Shown here piece after piece: positions 1-5,068 of a stretch of 5,068 nt of DNA. A model generated the notes under the pieces. That model did no database searches and had not been told where the DNA came from. It was given only the letters and a program-made list of their open reading frames with translations. The stretch lies in contig JBFMHD010000203.1 in assembly GCA_040752395.1 (NCBI GenBank), positions 1 through 5,068 on the forward strand. The letters run 5' to 3'. Numbering within the stretch: position 1 is the stretch's first letter; each line of letters starts with the position of its first letter. The DNA comes from JBFMHD01 sp040752395 [NCBI: Candidatus Hydrogenedentota bacterium] (GTDB lineage Bacteria > JBFMHD01). Both the position numbers and the translations under genes were made by a program.

Positions 1-1331
1 GTGATTATGGCAGGTCGCACTGGATTACAAAAGATGCATCAAGCGGTGAAGAAAATCCACAGCATTATATGGAAAACAGATTCTGGTTTGACGTTGCTCC
101 TTCTGTATGGTCGTTCTTAAAAATGACTGTTAAAGGTGGGGGCAGCAGATTTGATGTTCAAATGCAAGAAGGCGCTCTTTGTATTGGAAAGTATGGCAAG
201 GATAGTAAAGGTAAAGACTGGGGAGTTGAGTTGAAACCATTTAAAAACTGGGGTGAATATAATATCGGCCATAATATTGATTTAGTGTCAAATGACAGCA
301 GTCGGTGGGATTTCAATACTGGCGGAGTGAGGTTTAATGCATGGGGTAAAGACTTCTGGAGCCATTTTGTAACAGGGCCATCTGCTGATGGTCAGGATCA
401 GCTGGCTGGTCGATGGGGTAAAAATTTTTTTAATGCGCAATTAACTTTAGCGAATTTTGGTGGTTATAAAAGATGGGATGCCGGGAGTAATTACAATTAT
501 TACTGGGGGTTTGAGATACGGGGTAATCACAAAAACTTTTTCTCACCTGCAAATGTATATTATCAGTTTAACTGGGCCACTTCCAATACTACTAATATTG
601 TAAGAACATCTGACAATAATTTACTTGATTTTGAGATAAGAGACTTTCAGTTTTATGGATTAAAATTTGGGACACTGGGTTTTAATTTACGGTATGCAGA
701 TTATGACAAAGATTTCAGAGACTATATATCAAATACATTTGGGGCGGTACCGGATAGAAAAGAATATTATGGCGAAACATACTATAATTTTCCTGCAAAA
801 ATGGCTACACTTGTTATAAGCGAGACATATCGTGAGAACCAGGCTGGTGTAAAACTAAACGAGGACTTTAATTCAAGATTAGAGATATCATTTATAAATA
901 ATTTTTCTACGAAATTTATCTATAAAAATTACAAAGACTCTAATGGTATTTATCCTAATTATATATTTTGGCTTAAAGCAGCAGATGAGATGGGGTTTAT
1001 TCGAGCCGGATTTAGAATAAGAGACCCTGAAACTATTTATAAAAAGCGATTTTTTGGCGTCGAAGGCAATTATAATATATCAAAACAACTGATGTTTTTT
1101 AGCCGTTTAATCGTTTCTGAAGAGGTTCTGACAGAAAATTATAAACAGAGTTTATTTCTGCAATTGAGATATAACTGGGAAAATACAAGGTTTTATCTTG
1201 AGTACGGTCCTACATGGATAGGTTCGAACTCGCTTGTAGAAGATGATAATACAGCTGACCTGTTATATGATGATGATTGGGAAAGAAAGAATCAGGACCG
1301 TATCCAATTTTTATTCCAGGCAGACTGGTAA
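1..1331 (+). CDS. Outer-membrane beta-barrel protein, 5'-truncated by window edge
   Basis: The frame is open from the first complete codon at position 3 to the TAA at 1329-1331, giving 442 visible residues. The first ATG, at 69, is preceded by 22 in-frame sense codons reading DYGRSHW...NPQHY and has no convincing ribosome binding site, so it is probably an internal Met and the real start is left of the window. No signal peptide is visible. The protein is rich in Trp, Tyr, Phe, Asn and Asp, with alternating polar/hydrophobic strands separated by Asn/Asp/Gly turns (for example GGVRFNAWG, YYWGFEIRGN, LFLQLRYNWENTRFYLEYG). It ends in ...IQFLFQADW; a C-terminal aromatic residue closing an amphipathic strand is the usual outer-membrane barrel signature recognised by the BAM machinery. 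No named porin family is recognisable. The visible N-terminal strand region loosely resembles the start of the barrel in the next gene, so the two may be distant paralogues (inference). A 163 bp repeat-filled gap separates it from that gene. Confidence 0.8.
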   Translation, partial: DYGRSHWITKDASSGEENPQHYMENRFWFDVAPSVWSFLKMTVKGGGSRFDVQMQEGALCIGKYGKDSKGKDWGVELKPFKNWGEYNIGHNIDLVSNDSSRWDFNTGGVRFNAWGKDFWSHFVTGPSADGQDQLAGRWGKNFFNAQLTLANFGGYKRWDAGSNYNYYWGFEIRGNHKNFFSPANVYYQFNWATSNTTNIVRTSDNNLLDFEIRDFQFYGLKFGTLGFNLRYADYDKDFRDYISNTFGAVPDRKEYYGETYYNFPAKMATLVISETYRENQAGVKLNEDFNSRLEISFINNFSTKFIYKNYKDSNGIYPNYIFWLKAADEMGFIRAGFRIRDPETIYKKRFFGVEGNYNISKQLMFFSRLIVSEEVLTENYKQSLFLQLRYNWENTRFYLEYGPTWIGSNSLVEDDNTADLLYDDDWERKNQDRIQFLFQADW

Positions 1332-1350
1332 GATCAAGAGATGATATGAA

Positions 1351-1478
1351 ATCAGTCTAAAAGTCAAAGAATCGTGAGTCGTGAGTTAGCAGCCTTTAGT
1401 CGTCAGTCTTTAGTCATTAGTCTTTGACTTATGACTGGCAACTTATTGACTGATTTTACGACTTGAGACTTAAGACTG
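1351..1478. repeat. Heptad repeat array with internal inversion (NNNAGTC then NNNGACT)
   Basis: From 1351 to 1422 the sequence reads as about ten 7-bp units ending in AGTC or a one-base variant, in nearly perfect 7-bp phase from 1374 onward (GTGAGTC, GTGAGTT, AGCAGCC, then units at 1395, 1402, 1409 and 1416). From 1423 to 1477 the units instead end in GACT, the reverse complement: units start at 1423, 1430, 1437, 1445, 1457, 1464 and 1471. The first three bases of each unit vary while the last four are held. The array is therefore a set of direct repeats that reverses orientation near 1422/1423. It fills most of the gap between the first two genes. Confidence 0.85.
1353..1478 (+). other. Long imperfect inverted repeat / possible RNA hairpin
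   Basis: Nested complementary segments follow from the orientation switch. CAGTCT (1353-1358) pairs with AGACTG (1473-1478), AAGTC (1361-1365) with GACTT (1467-1471), AGTCGT (1398-1403) with ACGACT (1458-1463), and CAGTC (1404-1408) with GACTG (1448-1452). The core AGTCATTAGTC (1412-1422) pairs with GACTTATGACT (1426-1436), ten of eleven pairs, around a TTT loop. If genes 1 and 2 share a transcript, this would form a branched or bulged stem ending 5 bases before the Shine-Dalgarno of gene 2. The repetitive AGTC content also allows alternative registers, so the exact fold is uncertain. No T-tract follows, so it is not an obvious intrinsic terminator. Confidence 0.6.
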
Positions 1479-1483
1479 TTTAT

Positions 1484-1488
1484 AGGAG
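1484..1488 (+). promoter_or_regulatory. Ribosome binding site of the CBM-barrel gene
   Basis: AGGAG lies 6 bases before the ATG at 1495, a strong Shine-Dalgarno match at good spacing. It supports that start together with the signal peptide that begins immediately after it. Confidence 0.85.
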
Positions 1489-1494
1489 TTATTT

Positions 1495-3675
1495 ATGAGA
1501 ACCAAATTTATTAAATTGGTGATTTTATTGATTATTATCTCGCTCTGGATAATAGATTATATTAAAGCACAGCCTTTGCCAGTTACTATTGAAGCAGGTG
1601 AGATAGTATTTCGGTATCAGGATGCGTTTGCTGATAAGGTTACTATAGCAGGTAATTTTAATAACTGGAACCCTGACCAATATAAATTACGCAAAGAAAA
1701 AGATGATATATTTGTAATAAAACTTAAACTTGATGTAGGGATGTATGAATATAAATATATAATAGATGGTAACTGGATGAGTGGTGATAATATTAAACTC
1801 AAGGTGATACGAAATGAGAGAGGGGAGTTAGAGGTAAAAGAAAAAACAGCTCAATATAATATACTCTCGAATACAAAAGTTTATGTTAATGGTGGCTATT
1901 TTTTCAAAGGTGGAACAAAATTTGAAGACAAAAGTAATAATAATCGTTATTCCTGGCGGATTACAAAACCTGATAATGAGATGGACCTTAATATAGAACT
2001 CTCAATTAATCAGAATGTTTCAGTCTTTGCTAATCTGAACGCAAATTATACTGAGAGAGGGGATGCTCAATTTCGGATGGATGAAGCAAGTATGAGAGGG
2101 GAGCTCGGACCTGTATCTATAACTGGTTTTTTAAATCAGCGATTAGTTGATATTGATGACCCGCTTCGAATAATCGATTATTCTTACAGACTTTATACAG
2201 AGGATGATGCGTGGACCGAACACTGGCATTATATCCGTGCCGAAGACCCGTTCAGATATTATGGCAGTATCTCTAATTTAGCCACAAGAGAGATGTTTCT
2301 TATTGGTGAACAAAGAACAGAAGATTGTTTATATGGTAAAGGTTTACAGGGCGGTATTTTACAATTCGAGCCCTGGGGGTTTAATAACACCTTCTTCTTT
2401 CTTGATTCTATAAGGTCTGACAGAGTCTTTTTCGGGTATCGTGGTAAAAAATCCTGGGATATGTTTTATATCGGTGGTCTTTTCTATACTGATAGAATTG
2501 AAGACGGGTTATGGGGAAATCTTGATTTTGGAGGCGACAGGTATGTAACTGTTGCTGAAAACGGGATGAATTATTCTAATGCTGGTGGTGCTGATAGATG
2601 GTGGAGATTGGATTCACCTAATCTATGGGTACATAACTTCGATAATGTTATTATTCTTGATGCTGATGGCAGAAACCAGAACAGGCTCGCAGGCATTGAT
2701 GCAGGTCTCCTGTTTGATTATGTCAAACTTTATTTTGAATACATAAATGAGCATCGGGAATCAGCCTATGTAGCGAGTCTCGATGGTGTAAATGACGCGT
2801 TCAATAATGCAACTGAGTATTCAAGATATTTTTATGGTAGAAACGATGGCACCTATACAAGGGCTTTTGGGGCACAGGAATTTGGTGGTGACCATCGTGG
2901 CAATATCTTTCTTGTTGGGTGTAGATTTGATATTATAAAAAGTTTTGATGCTGATTTATTCGTATATTTTCACGATAGAGAATCAGTGCTTCTGCCTCTT
3001 TATGGCGATACAGACACTCTTTTAAGAGTCTCACCGCAGAGAGACACTATAACTGGCAGATTAAGATATAAAGGCAAGCGATTTAATGCAGGGTTAGAAT
3101 TATCATATACAAGAATCGATGATTATCCAGTGGTCACATTTGAGAACATTTATGATGAATACGGGTTTTACGGTCTCGAAATACTTGGTGCTAAAAAACG
3201 TAATACAGCCACGCTTCTTATGAACTGGAAACCTATCGATAGAATAGATATCTTCTTTGGGGATAGATATAAAAACTTCAGATACTATGACAAGAAAGCT
3301 GATGTTAATTTTACTGATTTTGTATTCAAGTTTAAATGGACCAAAAGATTATATAATGATGCAGGGATCCGGTTAGTAAATTATGATGTTAATACAGTTG
3401 ACCACACTTATACTTTCCCCCATCTTGGTATAGGATACCAATTTTTGAAGAATGTAAATTTAAGATTATACTACGGAATAGATTATCTATTTGATGATGA
3501 TAAACTTGAGGGTGGTAGATATGATTTGTGGAGTAAATACGGTTATGGCGCTGAACGAGCCGTATACTCATATAACCCTAATATCGACCCTAATGTTAAT
3601 GATTTATTCCATGCTGAAGATTTACTGAAAAAAGAGAAACGAGTTGTTCTTGAAGCAAAAGTTATATTCGAATGA
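1495..3675 (+). CDS. Secreted glycogen-binding-domain (CBM48/AMPK1_CBM) outer-membrane barrel protein
   Basis: This is a 726-residue protein. Residues 1-25 form a signal peptide: basic start (R2, K4, K7), hydrophobic core about 8-20, likely cleavage after A25 (IKA|QP). Residues about 34-115 match the glycogen-binding early-set domain of AMPK beta subunits and CBM48. Features seen are VFRY at 38-41, the GNFNNWNP turn at 53-60, and YEYKYIIDGNW at 84-94. W58, K87 and W94 sit where AMPK beta carries its known sugar-contacting Trp, Lys and Trp (equivalence judged by eye); the later Asn contact has no clear equivalent. From about 128 to the end the sequence is a long aromatic-rich, strand-and-turn region typical of an outer-membrane barrel. 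The last strand is RVVLEAKVIFE, with Phe next to last rather than last. Only two cysteines are present (C278, C476) and there is no lipobox. No catalytic domain is evident. Likely role: a surface or periplasm-facing polysaccharide-binding barrel. The domain fold is well supported; ligand and function are inferred. Confidence 0.85.
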   Translation: MRTKFIKLVILLIIISLWIIDYIKAQPLPVTIEAGEIVFRYQDAFADKVTIAGNFNNWNPDQYKLRKEKDDIFVIKLKLDVGMYEYKYIIDGNWMSGDNIKLKVIRNERGELEVKEKTAQYNILSNTKVYVNGGYFFKGGTKFEDKSNNNRYSWRITKPDNEMDLNIELSINQNVSVFANLNANYTERGDAQFRMDEASMRGELGPVSITGFLNQRLVDIDDPLRIIDYSYRLYTEDDAWTEHWHYIRAEDPFRYYGSISNLATREMFLIGEQRTEDCLYGKGLQGGILQFEPWGFNNTFFFLDSIRSDRVFFGYRGKKSWDMFYIGGLFYTDRIEDGLWGNLDFGGDRYVTVAENGMNYSNAGGADRWWRLDSPNLWVHNFDNVIILDADGRNQNRLAGIDAGLLFDYVKLYFEYINEHRESAYVASLDGVNDAFNNATEYSRYFYGRNDGTYTRAFGAQEFGGDHRGNIFLVGCRFDIIKSFDADLFVYFHDRESVLLPLYGDTDTLLRVSPQRDTITGRLRYKGKRFNAGLELSYTRIDDYPVVTFENIYDEYGFYGLEILGAKKRNTATLLMNWKPIDRIDIFFGDRYKNFRYYDKKADVNFTDFVFKFKWTKRLYNDAGIRLVNYDVNTVDHTYTFPHLGIGYQFLKNVNLRLYYGIDYLFDDDKLEGGRYDLWSKYGYGAERAVYSYNPNIDPNVNDLFHAEDLLKKEKRVVLEAKVIFE

Positions 3676-3701: not shown

Positions 3702-4646
3702 ATGTTTAAGATTAGATTTATTATTTTTTTAGTTATGTTATATTATACAACCACTCTATTTGCAAACGGTGCTGGCTCAACCACGTGCGATTTCTTATTA
3801 ATAGATTATTCTACAAAATCATCGGGTATGGGGTCATCTTATGCAGGATGCTTTAACCATCCTGATGCATTGATTTTTAATCCTGCAGGACTTGGTTTTA
3901 TCAGACAGAATATATTTACAGCAAGCCATTTAGAATATCTTGCTGAGATGAGATATGAGTATATTGCTATGGTTCATAAATTATATGATGATTGGAACTG
4001 GGGTGCAAACATTGTATATCGTGGATCAGATGAAGTGGCAAGAGACTCAAAAGGCAGAGATATCGGAGAATTTGTTAACAGAGATATATTTGCAACCTTT
4101 GGCGCAGGCTACCCTGTGAATAAATATTTCTCGTTTGGGATCGCAGCAAAAGTGATTTATCAGCGACTCTTTGATAGGAATGGCTGGACTTTTGCAGTTG
4201 ATGGCGGCATGCATTTACAGAAACAATGGAAAAATGTAAAATTTATAACAGGTCTGTCATTAATGAATCTGGGGCCTGATATAAGTTATGATGGTGCAGA
4301 AGGACCGCTACCGATATTGTGGCGTGTCTCATTTGGTCTGGATTTTTCAATAAAAAAACATCAGTTCTTAATCACTCAGGATTCAAGAATAATAAAAAAG
4401 AATGAACCTGATTTTTCGTTCGGGATTGAATACAAACCAAATAATTATTTCGGCTGCAGGATAGGTTTTGTTGGTGGTAAAGAGATGACAGATTTCAATT
4501 CACCGAGAATAGGGTTTTCATTTTATCAGAAATATGGCACTTTTGATTATAGTTTCAGGCGTCTCAAAGGGCTTGATGATATACACCAGATAAGTTATAC
4601 TATACCATTTGGAAAAGGCAGGTGGCTAACAGAGATGGAAAAGTAA
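3702..4646 (+). CDS. PorV/PorQ family (UPF0164) outer-membrane protein
   Basis: This is a 314-residue protein, a typical length for the family. Residues 1-21 are a signal peptide (MFKIRF, hydrophobic core, cleavage near LFA|NG). The family's N-terminal signature follows: GAGSTTCDFLLIDYSTKSSG (23-42) leading to the MGSSYAGC...HPDALIFNPAGLG segment (43-65). It corresponds to the usual pattern of Gly-Thr/Ser start, FL-I-, S/A-GMG-A-A and D--AL--NPAGL. The rest is a FadL-like barrel with regular strands, ending at HQISYTIPF (295-303) plus a polar tail of about 11 residues. In Bacteroidota, PorV is a shuttle in type IX secretion and PorQ a relative. Many other lineages carry the family without a known role, and no type IX genes are visible here, so secretion function cannot be claimed. 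It starts 26 bp after the CBM-barrel gene, which suggests co-transcription. Three cysteines (C29, C50, C252) are present. Confidence 0.85.
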   Translation: MFKIRFIIFLVMLYYTTTLFANGAGSTTCDFLLIDYSTKSSGMGSSYAGCFNHPDALIFNPAGLGFIRQNIFTASHLEYLAEMRYEYIAMVHKLYDDWNWGANIVYRGSDEVARDSKGRDIGEFVNRDIFATFGAGYPVNKYFSFGIAAKVIYQRLFDRNGWTFAVDGGMHLQKQWKNVKFITGLSLMNLGPDISYDGAEGPLPILWRVSFGLDFSIKKHQFLITQDSRIIKKNEPDFSFGIEYKPNNYFGCRIGFVGGKEMTDFNSPRIGFSFYQKYGTFDYSFRRLKGLDDIHQISYTIPFGKGRWLTEMEK

Positions 4647-4690
4647 TATACTGCTCCCCTGAATTGAAAGATTATGAAGTCAAGTAGTGA

Positions 4691-4704
4691 GGGTCACAAG
4701 ACCC
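4691..4704 (+). other. Small hairpin downstream of the operon
   Basis: GGGTC (4691-4695) and GACCC (4700-4704) form a perfect 5-bp GC-rich stem closed by an ACAA tetraloop, 44 bases after the last stop codon. No T-run follows, so it is not a canonical intrinsic terminator. GGGT could alternatively pair with ACCC at 4722-4725. It might mark the transcript 3' end or belong to a small structured RNA. Confidence 0.45.
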
Positions 4705-4707
4705 GTA

Positions 4708-4723
4708 GTATAGCCGGCTTTAC
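4708..4723. repeat. 16-bp near-perfect palindrome around AGCCGGCT
   Basis: GTATAGCCGGCTTTAC is self-complementary except for one central-flank pair (4711/4720). Having no loop, it resembles a binding site for a dimeric protein more than an RNA hairpin. Its 8-bp core recurs exactly at 4968-4975. Confidence 0.4.
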
Positions 4724-4736
4724 CCATCCATAGAGA

Positions 4737-4752
4737 GGCACAAAGGCACAAA
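4737..4752. repeat. Two tandem copies of GGCACAAA
   Basis: Two exact 8-bp copies (4737-4744 and 4745-4752) open the chain of short tandem repeats that continues to about 5040. Confidence 0.75.
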
Positions 4753-4761
4753 ATTAAATTC

Positions 4762-4782
4762 AAAATTAAAAATTAAAAATTA
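4762..4782. repeat. Three tandem copies of AAAATTA
   Basis: Three exact 7-bp copies occur, preceded by shorter related AAATT units from 4751. Such an AT-only tract could also bend DNA, but nothing shows a promoter function. Confidence 0.8.
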
Positions 4783-4786
4783 GAAA

Positions 4787-4814
4787 ACAGGAGACAGGAG
4801 ACAGAAGTTAGGAG
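4787..4814. repeat. Heptad repeat, consensus ACAGGAG
   Basis: Four 7-bp units in phase: two exact copies of ACAGGAG (4787, 4794), then ACAGAAG (4801) and TTAGGAG (4808). The tract is nearly all purine on this strand. A related heptad, ACAGGCT, lies in inverted orientation near 4985-4998. Confidence 0.8.
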
Positions 4815-4838
4815 TTGAAGAGTTGAAGAGTTAAAGAA
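4815..4838. repeat. Octad repeat, consensus TTGAAGAG
   Basis: Two exact 8-bp copies (4815, 4823) and a third variant, TTAAAGAA (4831), directly continue the previous heptad array. The period shifts here from 7 to 8 bp. Confidence 0.8.
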
Positions 4839-4841
4839 TGT

Positions 4842-4905
4842 ATTGAGTTTTTGGGTTATTGGGTTCTTGCGTTCTTGGGTTATTGGGTTATTGGGTTTTT
4901 GCGCT
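4842..4905. repeat. Eight tandem copies of an ATTGGGTT octamer
   Basis: Eight contiguous 8-bp units start at 4842, 4850, 4858, 4866, 4874, 4882, 4890 and 4898. Consensus is ATTGGGTT. Changes fall at unit position 1 (A, T or C) and position 5 (A, G or C), with one further change at position 7 in the last unit; TTG at positions 2-4 is invariant. There is no insertion or deletion in the 64 bp. Confidence 0.9.
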
Positions 4906-4939
4906 CTACACAAGGTATGAAAAACTAAAGATGATATGT

Positions 4940-4998
4940 TGGCTTCAGGCTCCGGGCTTTTGGCTCCAGCCGGCTGTAGTCCGTAGCCTGTAGCCTGT
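4940..4998. repeat. Heptad array switching from GGCT units to AGCC units
   Basis: Four 7-bp units of form NGGCTYN occupy 4940-4967. After the palindrome AGCCGGCT (4968-4975) come units GTAGTCC (4976), GTAGCCT (4983) and GTAGCCT (4990), which carry AGCC, the reverse complement of GGCT. This is the same orientation switch as in the 1351-1478 array, with a different core. Confidence 0.75.
4946..4990. other. Inverted repeat capable of a 13-bp stem
   Basis: CAGGCTCCGGGCT (4946-4958) pairs with AGTCCGTAGCCTG (4978-4990): eleven Watson-Crick pairs, one G-T pair and one mismatch (4952/4984), around a 19-base loop that contains AGCCGGCT. It arises from the unit switch of the surrounding array. No T-tract follows. 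Confidence 0.55.
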
Positions 4999-5026
4999 CC
5001 TGATACCTCTCACTTCTTCCGTTATC

Positions 5027-5040
5027 TTGCTTCTTGCTTC
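5027..5040. repeat. Two tandem copies of TTGCTTC
   Basis: Two exact 7-bp copies sit in a pyrimidine-rich stretch (about 5005-5040) and form the last recognisable tandem unit before the window ends. Confidence 0.7.
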
Positions 5041-5068
5041 TACTTGATATCATTAGAGTTACAATGTT

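What the first reader, a model, noticed from the sequence alone, without database searches (positions are those of the whole stretch)
1351..1478. Heptad array that reverses orientation in the middle
About ten NNNAGTC units are followed by seven NNNGACT units, in close 7-bp phase across the switch at 1422/1423. The four-base core is held while the other three bases drift. This is neither a simple microsatellite nor a normal hairpin: it is a repeat whose two halves are mirror-complementary, so the direct array and the stem-loop exist together. Heptanucleotide tandem repeats (STRR) are known from filamentous cyanobacteria, but a mid-array inversion with a conserved core is not something I recognise as described.
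Basis: seen in the sequence. Interest (0 to 1): 0.65.

Follow-up and report, generated by a model that had tools for sequence, protein, structure and literature searches.

The report
Head-to-head seven-base repeats between genes
The gap between two genes is filled by two runs of a loose seven-base repeat that face each other, and the same head-to-head layout, nearly always in the same order, recurs between genes in unrelated bacteria, which points to an unexplained directional process in bacterial DNA.

Summary
Gap 1332-1494 carries 7 exact AGTC and 6 exact GACT cores (10 and 7 with one mismatch); none of 2000 dinucleotide shuffles reached its 7-bp phasing. Strict phase covers eleven central units (1370-1443).

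It is not unique. An exact inverted pattern (chance about 0.5) hit 25 stretches of GTDB contigs in cyanobacteria, Acidobacteria, Bacteroidota, Bipolaricaulota, a Gemmatimonad and a Chloroflexi bin. It belongs to a known kind, intergenic heptanucleotide arrays; inverted "convergent" pairs are published for Xanthomonas GGGAATC.

The new part is a polarity. AGTC..GACT pairs outnumber GACT..AGTC by 246 to 3 matches (80 genomes) and 69 to 1 (247 Acidobacteria). In sampled stretches of six genomes 82 of 83 inverted heptad pairs of any core have the AG/GT/GG strand first. Arrays abutting one ORF edge mostly lead a G-richer strand away from it whichever way the gene runs (108 vs 31; gaps without arrays 489 vs 472), but for single arrays alone this is weak (32 vs 16).

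Best reading: two arms grew separately by slippage in a polar way; the "inversion" is where they meet. Non-core bases of facing arms are no more complementary than shuffled arms. Ku is not required. The cause of the polarity is unknown.

The parts
1332..1494 (.). whole intergenic gap between two + strand genes, largely filled by the heptad arrays
   Evidence: ORFs 3-1331 and 1495-3675; lag-7 identity 0.44, 0 of 2000 shuffles
1354..1422 (+). left arm: ten AGTC-type units (7 exact, 3 one base off); strict 7-bp register from 1370
   Evidence: AG/GT/GG minus CT/AC/CC dinucleotides of 1332-1422 = +20
1423..1425 (.). TTT at the switch
   Evidence: sequence
1426..1477 (-). right arm: seven GACT-type units (6 exact, 1 one base off), register lost after 1443
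   Evidence: same dinucleotide score of 1423-1494 = -7, though plain G minus C is +5
3..1331 (+). upstream ORF (442 aa, open at its 5' end), no Pfam or NCBIfam match at E 0.001
1484..1488 (+). AGGAG, likely ribosome-binding site of the downstream gene (motif recalled, not tested)
   Evidence: sequence
1495..3675 (+). downstream ORF (726 aa): AMPK1_CBM/CBM48 domain near the N-terminus, rest without a match
   Evidence: PF16561 E 2.5e-11, residues 38-110
4736..5041 (.). second gap with polar 7- and 8-base arrays: ACAGGAG, GAGTTGAA, TATTGGGT first, then CTGTAGC and TCTTGCT
   Evidence: dinucleotide score +32 for 4781-4910 and -11 for 4961-5068, near zero (+4) for 4647-4780 and 4911-4960

Best explanation
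It is a degenerate heptanucleotide array of the STRR-like kind. The two arms grew separately by gain and loss of seven-base units (replication or repair slippage), and in a polar way: in a gap with two arms, the arm next to each coding region has its AG/GT/GG-containing strand (here AGTC) running 5' to 3' away from that gene into the gap. The two arms then face each other and look like one array that switches from AGTC to GACT. Shown: recurrence, the fixed order of arms, its independence from gene direction, unit-number change between species, independent variable bases in the two arms. Inferred: slippage as the growth step, and a directional process acting on one strand of DNA in the gap (for example on 3' ends during break repair) as the source of the polarity. 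The RNA stem-loop is then a by-product.
For: Order: AGTC..GACT 246 matches in 45 of 80 genomes against 3 in 3 of 80 for the reverse order (overlapping matches counted); 69 in 13 of 247 against 1 in 1 of 247 Acidobacteria (two of the 247, with 23 of the 69, were already in the 80). Any core, period 7: 82 of 83 pair loci are AG/GT/GG-first in the six sampled genomes that had pairs (the Pedobacter sample had none); period 8: 11 of 12, three of them from IMG/VR. Short range: within 200 bp 9 vs 0, beyond 4 vs 8, in G023. Gene edge: AGTC runs lie nearer the ORF on their 5' side in 64 of 89, GGGA/TGGG in 19 of 20; of 152 arrays that abut one ORF edge the outward strand has G>C in 108, G<C in 31, tie 13, for start and stop edges alike (16:4, 24:8, 34:12, 34:7), against 489:472 in gaps without arrays. 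Unit number: GACTAAT from 1 to 7 copies in a gap of Nostoc relatives. Independent arms; orthologues with CAT on the left and AAT or AAC on the right. Published Xanthomonas and Beggiatoaceae data agree as I read them.
Against: The gene-edge tests include arms of pairs. For gaps with one array and no inverted partner the bias is only 32 vs 16 (tie 3, p 0.03), so the gene-edge part rests largely on gaps with several arrays. CAGT runs show no gene-edge bias (25 of 43). In 120 IMG/VR stretches the pair order is weaker (28 vs 7 pair loci, tie 1; AGTC-first 10, GACT-first 2). Nostoc G008 and Scytonema G019 alone are not significant for the G>C test (p 0.08, 0.13). By plain G against C, 22 of 119 pair loci go the other way and 16 tie, and the window's right arm has more G than C (14, 9). 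Stop edges without arrays lean slightly the same way (225:186). The AG/GT/GG criterion was chosen after seeing part of the data. No age gradient was found (11 arrays), so the growing end is not shown. Ku is absent from all 13 cyanobacterial genomes tested, so Ku-dependent end joining is not the general route. Slippage alone does not explain why both arms share the core while the other bases differ; in four Pedobacter orthologues right-arm cores change about as often as the other bases (by eye).
Confidence: 0.45

Rival explanations
1. RNA element: the inverted arrays are transcribed and fold into a long imperfect hairpin that ends transcription from either side or protects or processes the mRNA.
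For: The gap folds better than shuffles (z -3.57). The Pedobacter array fills the space between two stop codons of convergent genes, and in one relative (L273) the same space holds a different hairpin-like repeat (by eye). RNAs read from either strand of a pair carry AGUC first.
Against: Single arrays show no clear orientation to genes (small numbers) and the outward bias is similar at start and stop edges. The reverse order would fold with the same stacked pairs (reasoning). Non-core bases of the arms are no more complementary than shuffled arms. The window array lies between two genes on one strand.
Confidence: 0.2
2. Mobile palindromic element (REPIN- or MITE-like) whose ends consist of heptads; copies are inserted as units, so the order is fixed by the element.
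For: In G382 and G312 several copies share arms and similar spacers. In L368 and L374 further polar pairs lie inside the spacer of an AGTC pair. REP dimers have head-to-head or tail-to-tail forms with spacers of variable or conserved sequence (PMC3733652 section 14).
Against: The spacers listed are mostly different in sequence and length (by eye). Y1 transposase genes were not found in 5 of 35 array-bearing genomes, G023 with 20 pair matches among them, and were found in 25 of 35 Acidobacteria without the pair pattern (drafts, so absence is weak). No target duplication seen by eye at the nested insertions.
Confidence: 0.17
3. DNA-level recognition site: a protein that reads AGTC-like words with polarity, for example a recombination-control site of the Chi kind (recalled), placed so that resection from a break in the gap stops before the gene.
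For: In gaps with two arms the polarity faces the gap from both gene edges whatever the gene direction. Repeat-bearing Xanthomonas gaps lie in more conserved neighbourhoods than controls (PMC4692102 section 14).
Against: Several different cores per genome; a single protein would be expected to prefer one. No binding protein was looked for. 234 of 247 Acidobacteria lack the AGTC pair pattern.
Confidence: 0.15
4. Ordinary slippage microsatellite; the polarity is a side effect of sequence selection at gene edges.
For: Copy-number change in orthologues. Period 7 dominates in three genomes looked at. The gene-edge bias of single arrays is weak (32 vs 16).
Against: Gaps without arrays have almost no such bias (489 vs 472), and slippage acting on chance seeds should give both orders equally, against 246:3 and 69:1.
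Confidence: 0.18

Closest known systems
GGGAATC and GGGGA(C/T)T heptamer repeats of Xanthomonas and Nostoc (PMC4692102; sections 10 and 14 read whole, passages elsewhere)
   Same: Heptads with conserved and loose positions, mostly intergenic, two arrays in convergent orientation (70 in Xcc, 75 in Xac), nearer the 5' neighbouring ORF (28 nt against 160 nt; I take 5' to mean the repeat's own 5' side), 83% kept in the same gene context between species.
   Different: G-rich, studied as quadruplex formers; only a few paired repeats in the Nostoc strain studied. Here the core is AGTC, without G-runs, in several phyla, and the order is tested across cores and against gene direction.
TAACTGA direct repeats of Beggiatoaceae, cyanobacteria and Bacteroidetes (PMC4679880; abstract, section 5 part 1 of 5 and section 10 read)
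   Same: Intergenic heptads in overlapping phyla; in the main genome and Flexibacter mostly forward before start codons, and one set just after a stop codon in reverse, which fits the polarity found here.
   Different: Core ACTG rather than GACT; one inverted case reported in the main genome; read as a translational regulator site. Its Microcystis sample (6 forward, 8 reverse to a start codon, 8 between stop codons of 22) shows no simple rule relative to start codons.
STRR heptamers of heterocystous cyanobacteria (recalled; Calothrix heptanucleotides are mentioned in PMC4692102)
   Same: Degenerate tandem heptanucleotides between genes.
   Different: Original description not read; inversion and polarity not known to me from it.
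REP/REPIN dimers (PMC3733652; abstract and section 14 read)
   Same: Mostly intergenic inverted dimers with variable spacers.
   Different: Each REP is itself a palindrome with a GTAG or CGTC tag; heptad arms are direct repeats of no fixed length.

Membership tests
Intergenic heptanucleotide tandem arrays (STRR-like) | seven-base period | tested here: met
   lag-7 identity 0.44, highest of lags 1-24, 0 of 2000 shuffles
Intergenic heptanucleotide tandem arrays (STRR-like) | lies between genes | tested here: met
   gap between ORFs 3-1331 and 1495-3675
Intergenic heptanucleotide tandem arrays (STRR-like) | dispersed in many copies in its own genome | not testable with these tools
   no genome held for the window; in other genomes up to 252 overlapping matches of five AGTC units
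Xanthomonas GGGAATC convergent pairs | two arrays on opposite strands facing each other | tested here: met
   dinucleotide score +20 then -7
Xanthomonas GGGAATC convergent pairs | G-tract of the unit, able to form a quadruplex | tested here: not met
   core AGTC/GACT, no repeated GGG
TAACTGA repeats | unit TAACTGA | tested here: not met
   cores are GACT and AGTC
REP/REPIN | each unit a short palindrome with GTAG or CGTC tag | tested here: not met
   arms are direct heptads; the two inverted repeats found pair one arm with the other
REP/REPIN | partner Y1 transposase in the genome | tested here: inconclusive
   not testable for the window; 30 of 35 array-bearing genomes have one, 25 of 35 Acidobacteria without the pair pattern
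Known structured RNA family | Rfam match at gathering score | tested here: not met
   0 matches in the window

The most novel reading that the evidence does not exclude
Heptad arrays in many bacterial phyla are the trace of one directional DNA process: units are laid on the strand that runs 5' to 3' from a gene edge into the gap, as when 3' ends at breaks are extended and the two extended ends are then joined head to head, much as fused telomeres look. Repeated events would give the nested pairs seen in Nostoc (L368, L374).
Probability: 0.2. Interest if true: 0.8.

Novelty: new variant of a known kind. Interest (0 to 1): 0.5.

Why it matters
Heptanucleotide arrays are known from several bacterial groups, and I know of no accepted origin or function. 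An order of arms that nearly always holds, across cores and phyla and regardless of gene direction, is a strong constraint: it argues against plain slippage and against a gene-oriented RNA role, and it gives a simple measurable quantity (order of arms, strand facing the gap) with which any proposed mechanism can be tested.

Tried and rejected
Rfam: nothing at gathering score. Idea that arrays follow gene strand (3' UTR element): not supported. Idea that the arms are a fold-back or inversion product: not supported by the non-core bases (4, 12 and 7 pairs in three genomes; two genomes with 2 pairs each not scored). Idea of a GT-rich strand: not general, since Nostoc variable bases are A- and C-rich while the order still holds. 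Ku-dependent end joining: Ku in 12 of 35 array-bearing genomes and 15 of 35 Acidobacteria without the pair pattern, 0 of the 13 cyanobacteria. Y1 transposase. Age gradient along arrays: 11 arrays, no difference; core decay outward in 27 pairs has no null and was not used. The 'backwards' control (CTGA core) of the genome search is not neutral, because CTGA/TCAG heptads are a natural family too. In one search, 14 of 30 printed stretches missed the array's position and were not used, of 27 loci tried, those where the anchors did not fall in order or matched poorly were not used. Papers: searches cover the held open library only; no paper they listed is titled or abstracted as describing an AGTC heptad or a polarity across cores, and only PMC4692102, PMC4679880, PMC3733652 (parts named above) and passages of PMC4853749 (not used) were opened. 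Subscription papers on STRR and small dispersed repeats, which I recall, were not available.

Full report
What is there. The window (5068 bases, 36% G+C) holds three + strand genes: an open ORF 3-1331 with no family match, ORF 1495-3675 with a glycogen-binding AMPK1_CBM/CBM48 domain, and ORF 3702-4646 of the PorV/PorQ family. The 163-base gap 1332-1494 holds the array. Exact AGTC stands at seven places and exact GACT at six; four more units are one base off, each by a transition. Eleven units from 1370 to 1443 are in strict 7-bp register across the switch at 1423-1425; outside this stretch the register slips. Phase-locked count, 7-bp links and lag-7 identity were not reached by any of 2000 dinucleotide shuffles. 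The gap folds as RNA at -46.7 kcal/mol against a mean of -34.6 for shuffles.

Recurrence. The exact pattern of three AGTC and two GACT units in phase, expected about 0.5 times by chance (my estimate for 257 billion bases, both strands, equal base frequencies), hit 25 stretches in GTDB contigs. They are not all independent: by their flanks (by eye) L003, L011, L019 and L021 are one orthologous site, L012, L013 and L014 another, L004 and L015 a third; L008 and L023 lie in one genome. The record titles name cyanobacteria, Acidobacteria, Bacteroidota (Lewinella, Pedobacter, Prolixibacteraceae), Bipolaricaulota, a Gemmatimonad and a Chloroflexi bin. Five AGTC units in one orientation occur in 22 of 24 of these genomes, up to 252 overlapping matches. 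A count of heptads with variable remaining columns gave more arrays at period 7 than at periods 5, 6 and 8-12 in Pedobacter (11), Nostoc (49) and an Acidobacterium (144) (the Acidobacterium stretches were chosen at AGTC sites, the other two are contiguous). AGTC was the main core in 400 kb of Pedobacter and one of several in Nostoc.

Polarity of pairs. With two-plus-two units, AGTC-first pairs numbered 12 and 12 in the Nostoc G008 and Acidobacterium G023 samples, GACT-first none. Over 80 genomes the three-plus-three pattern with a spacer of 3 to 33 gave 246 AGTC-first matches in 45 genomes (summed) and 3 GACT-first matches in 3 genomes, of which two are GGGGACT arrays. Overlapping matches within one site are counted, so the number of sites is smaller. 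Over 247 Acidobacteria: 69 in 13 genomes against 1 in 1 genome; without the two genomes already used, 46 against 1. With all cores, 82 of 83 pair loci had the AG/GT/GG strand first in the sampled stretches of six genomes (the Pedobacter sample had no three-plus-three pair); the exception is in Scytonema G019. With period 8 it was 11 of 12, three of these from IMG/VR. By the plain count of G against C, over all 119 period-7 pair loci including IMG/VR, 81 are G-first, 22 the reverse and 16 tie. In 120 IMG/VR stretches chosen for AGTC runs the AG/GT/GG order is weaker, 28 to 7 with one tie. The AG/GT/GG criterion was formed on part of these data; the Acidobacteria phylum search and the IMG/VR stretches are the tests nearest to independent. 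In G023 array neighbours within 200 bp are 9 AGTC-first to 0, and beyond that 4 to 8, so the effect is local.

Polarity against genes. ORF calls here are simple longest-ORF calls. AGTC runs of four or more units lie closer to the ORF on their 5' side in 64 of 89 cases (p 4e-5), GGGA/TGGG in 19 of 20 (p 4e-5), CAGT in 25 of 43 (not significant). In a core-free search, 333 intergenic 7-periodic segments were found in six of seven samples; 152 abut exactly one ORF edge. The strand leading away from that edge has G>C in 108, G<C in 31, tie in 13, with the same sign for start and stop edges and for each arrangement of the two genes (16:4, 24:8, 34:12, 34:7). In the three contiguous cyanobacterial samples it is 57 to 22 (p 1e-4); G008 and G019 alone are not significant. 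Gaps without arrays in five samples gave 489 to 472 (stop edges 225:186, start edges 264:286). These tests include arms of pairs. Restricted to gaps with one array and no inverted partner, the bias is 32 to 16, tie 3 (p 0.03). So the order of arms in pairs is the strong result, and the rule for lone arrays is only suggested. The window agrees by dinucleotides: +20 left and -7 right of the switch, and in the second gap +32 then -11; by plain G against C its right arm does not reverse (14 G, 9 C).

How arrays change. In a gap next to a sufD-like gene of Nostoc relatives (gene name by recall) the unit GACTAAT is present once to seven times, or as GACGAAT/GACAAAT (16 of 30 printed stretches usable). 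In four Pedobacter species the convergent-gene gap keeps an AGTC/GACT pair while other bases drift; a fifth has an inverted heptad array with another core (GTT/AAC) in the same gap, and a sixth has none (by eye). In Nostoc orthologues the two arms share the AGTC core but carry different other bases (CAT on the left, AAT or AAC on the right), and in two species further polar pairs of other cores lie nested in the spacer (by eye). The non-core bases of facing arms are no more complementary than arms shuffled between loci (0.558 vs 0.565, 0.513 vs 0.482, 0.524 vs 0.513 for 4, 12 and 7 pairs). On this small sample the arms do not look like products of one inversion or fold-back.

Interpretation. 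The array is a member of the loose class of intergenic heptanucleotide arrays. Its inversion has a published counterpart: Xanthomonas GGGAATC arrays form 70 and 75 convergent pairs and sit on average 28 nt from the 5' neighbouring ORF against 160 nt on the other side (PMC4692102 section 10). TAACTGA repeats in the marine Beggiatoaceae genome mostly precede start codons in one orientation, and in Flexibacter a set after a stop codon is in reverse (PMC4679880), as the polarity predicts; its Microcystis sample is mixed. I did not find a statement that the AG/GT/GG strand comes first in inverted heptad pairs of any core among the papers listed. The best reading is separate growth of two polar arms. 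What imposes the polarity is not known. Extension of 3' ends during break repair would give it, and so would a polar binding site. Ku is not needed (0 of 13 cyanobacteria). A Y1 transposase is probably not needed (not found in 5 of 35 array-bearing genomes; drafts, so absence is weak). An RNA role is not excluded for single cases but does not explain the independence from gene direction.

Limits. The source genome is not held, so abundance in the window's own organism is unknown. The other genomes are mostly drafts behind handles. Three of the seven samples (marked * in the scripts) were chosen because they carry AGTC arrays.

Noticed in passing
window 4736-5041: The gap after ORF 3702-4646 is a chain of other 7- and 8-base arrays (AAATTAA, ACAGGAG, GAGTTGAA, TATTGGGT, then CTGTAGC, TCTTGCT), G-rich in the middle part and C/T-rich at the end.
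   Followed up: partly
G382 (places listed): Several copies of one roughly 65-base element with AGTCAGG/AGTCAGA ends and a shared spacer on different contigs; looks like a small dispersed palindromic element.
   Followed up: no
G312: Three pairs with AGTCGGG on one side and AGTCCAA on the other and similar spacers, in both directions: an asymmetric dispersed pair.
   Followed up: no
L368, L374: Polar inverted pairs of other cores (ATTTTAG/CTAAAAT type; AGGGGAG/CCCCTGC type) nested in the spacer of an AGTC pair.
   Followed up: partly
L009:300-335: A repeat of about 30 bases found in many places in Pedobacter genomes, near AAGATGCT...TTCAGCATG; a copy lies in the L273 gap that lacks the array.
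   Followed up: no
L272: The same convergent-gene gap that holds AGTC arrays in other Pedobacter species here holds an inverted heptad array with a GTT/AAC core.
   Followed up: no
L022 near 2992: An AGTC/GACT pair just before an ORF that starts like ribosomal protein L16 (recalled), perhaps inside a ribosomal protein operon.
   Followed up: no
L058-L177: AGTC heptad runs occur in at least 120 stretches of contigs classed as viral in IMG/VR (scan stopped at its limit); whether these are phages or misassigned host DNA was not tested.
   Followed up: no
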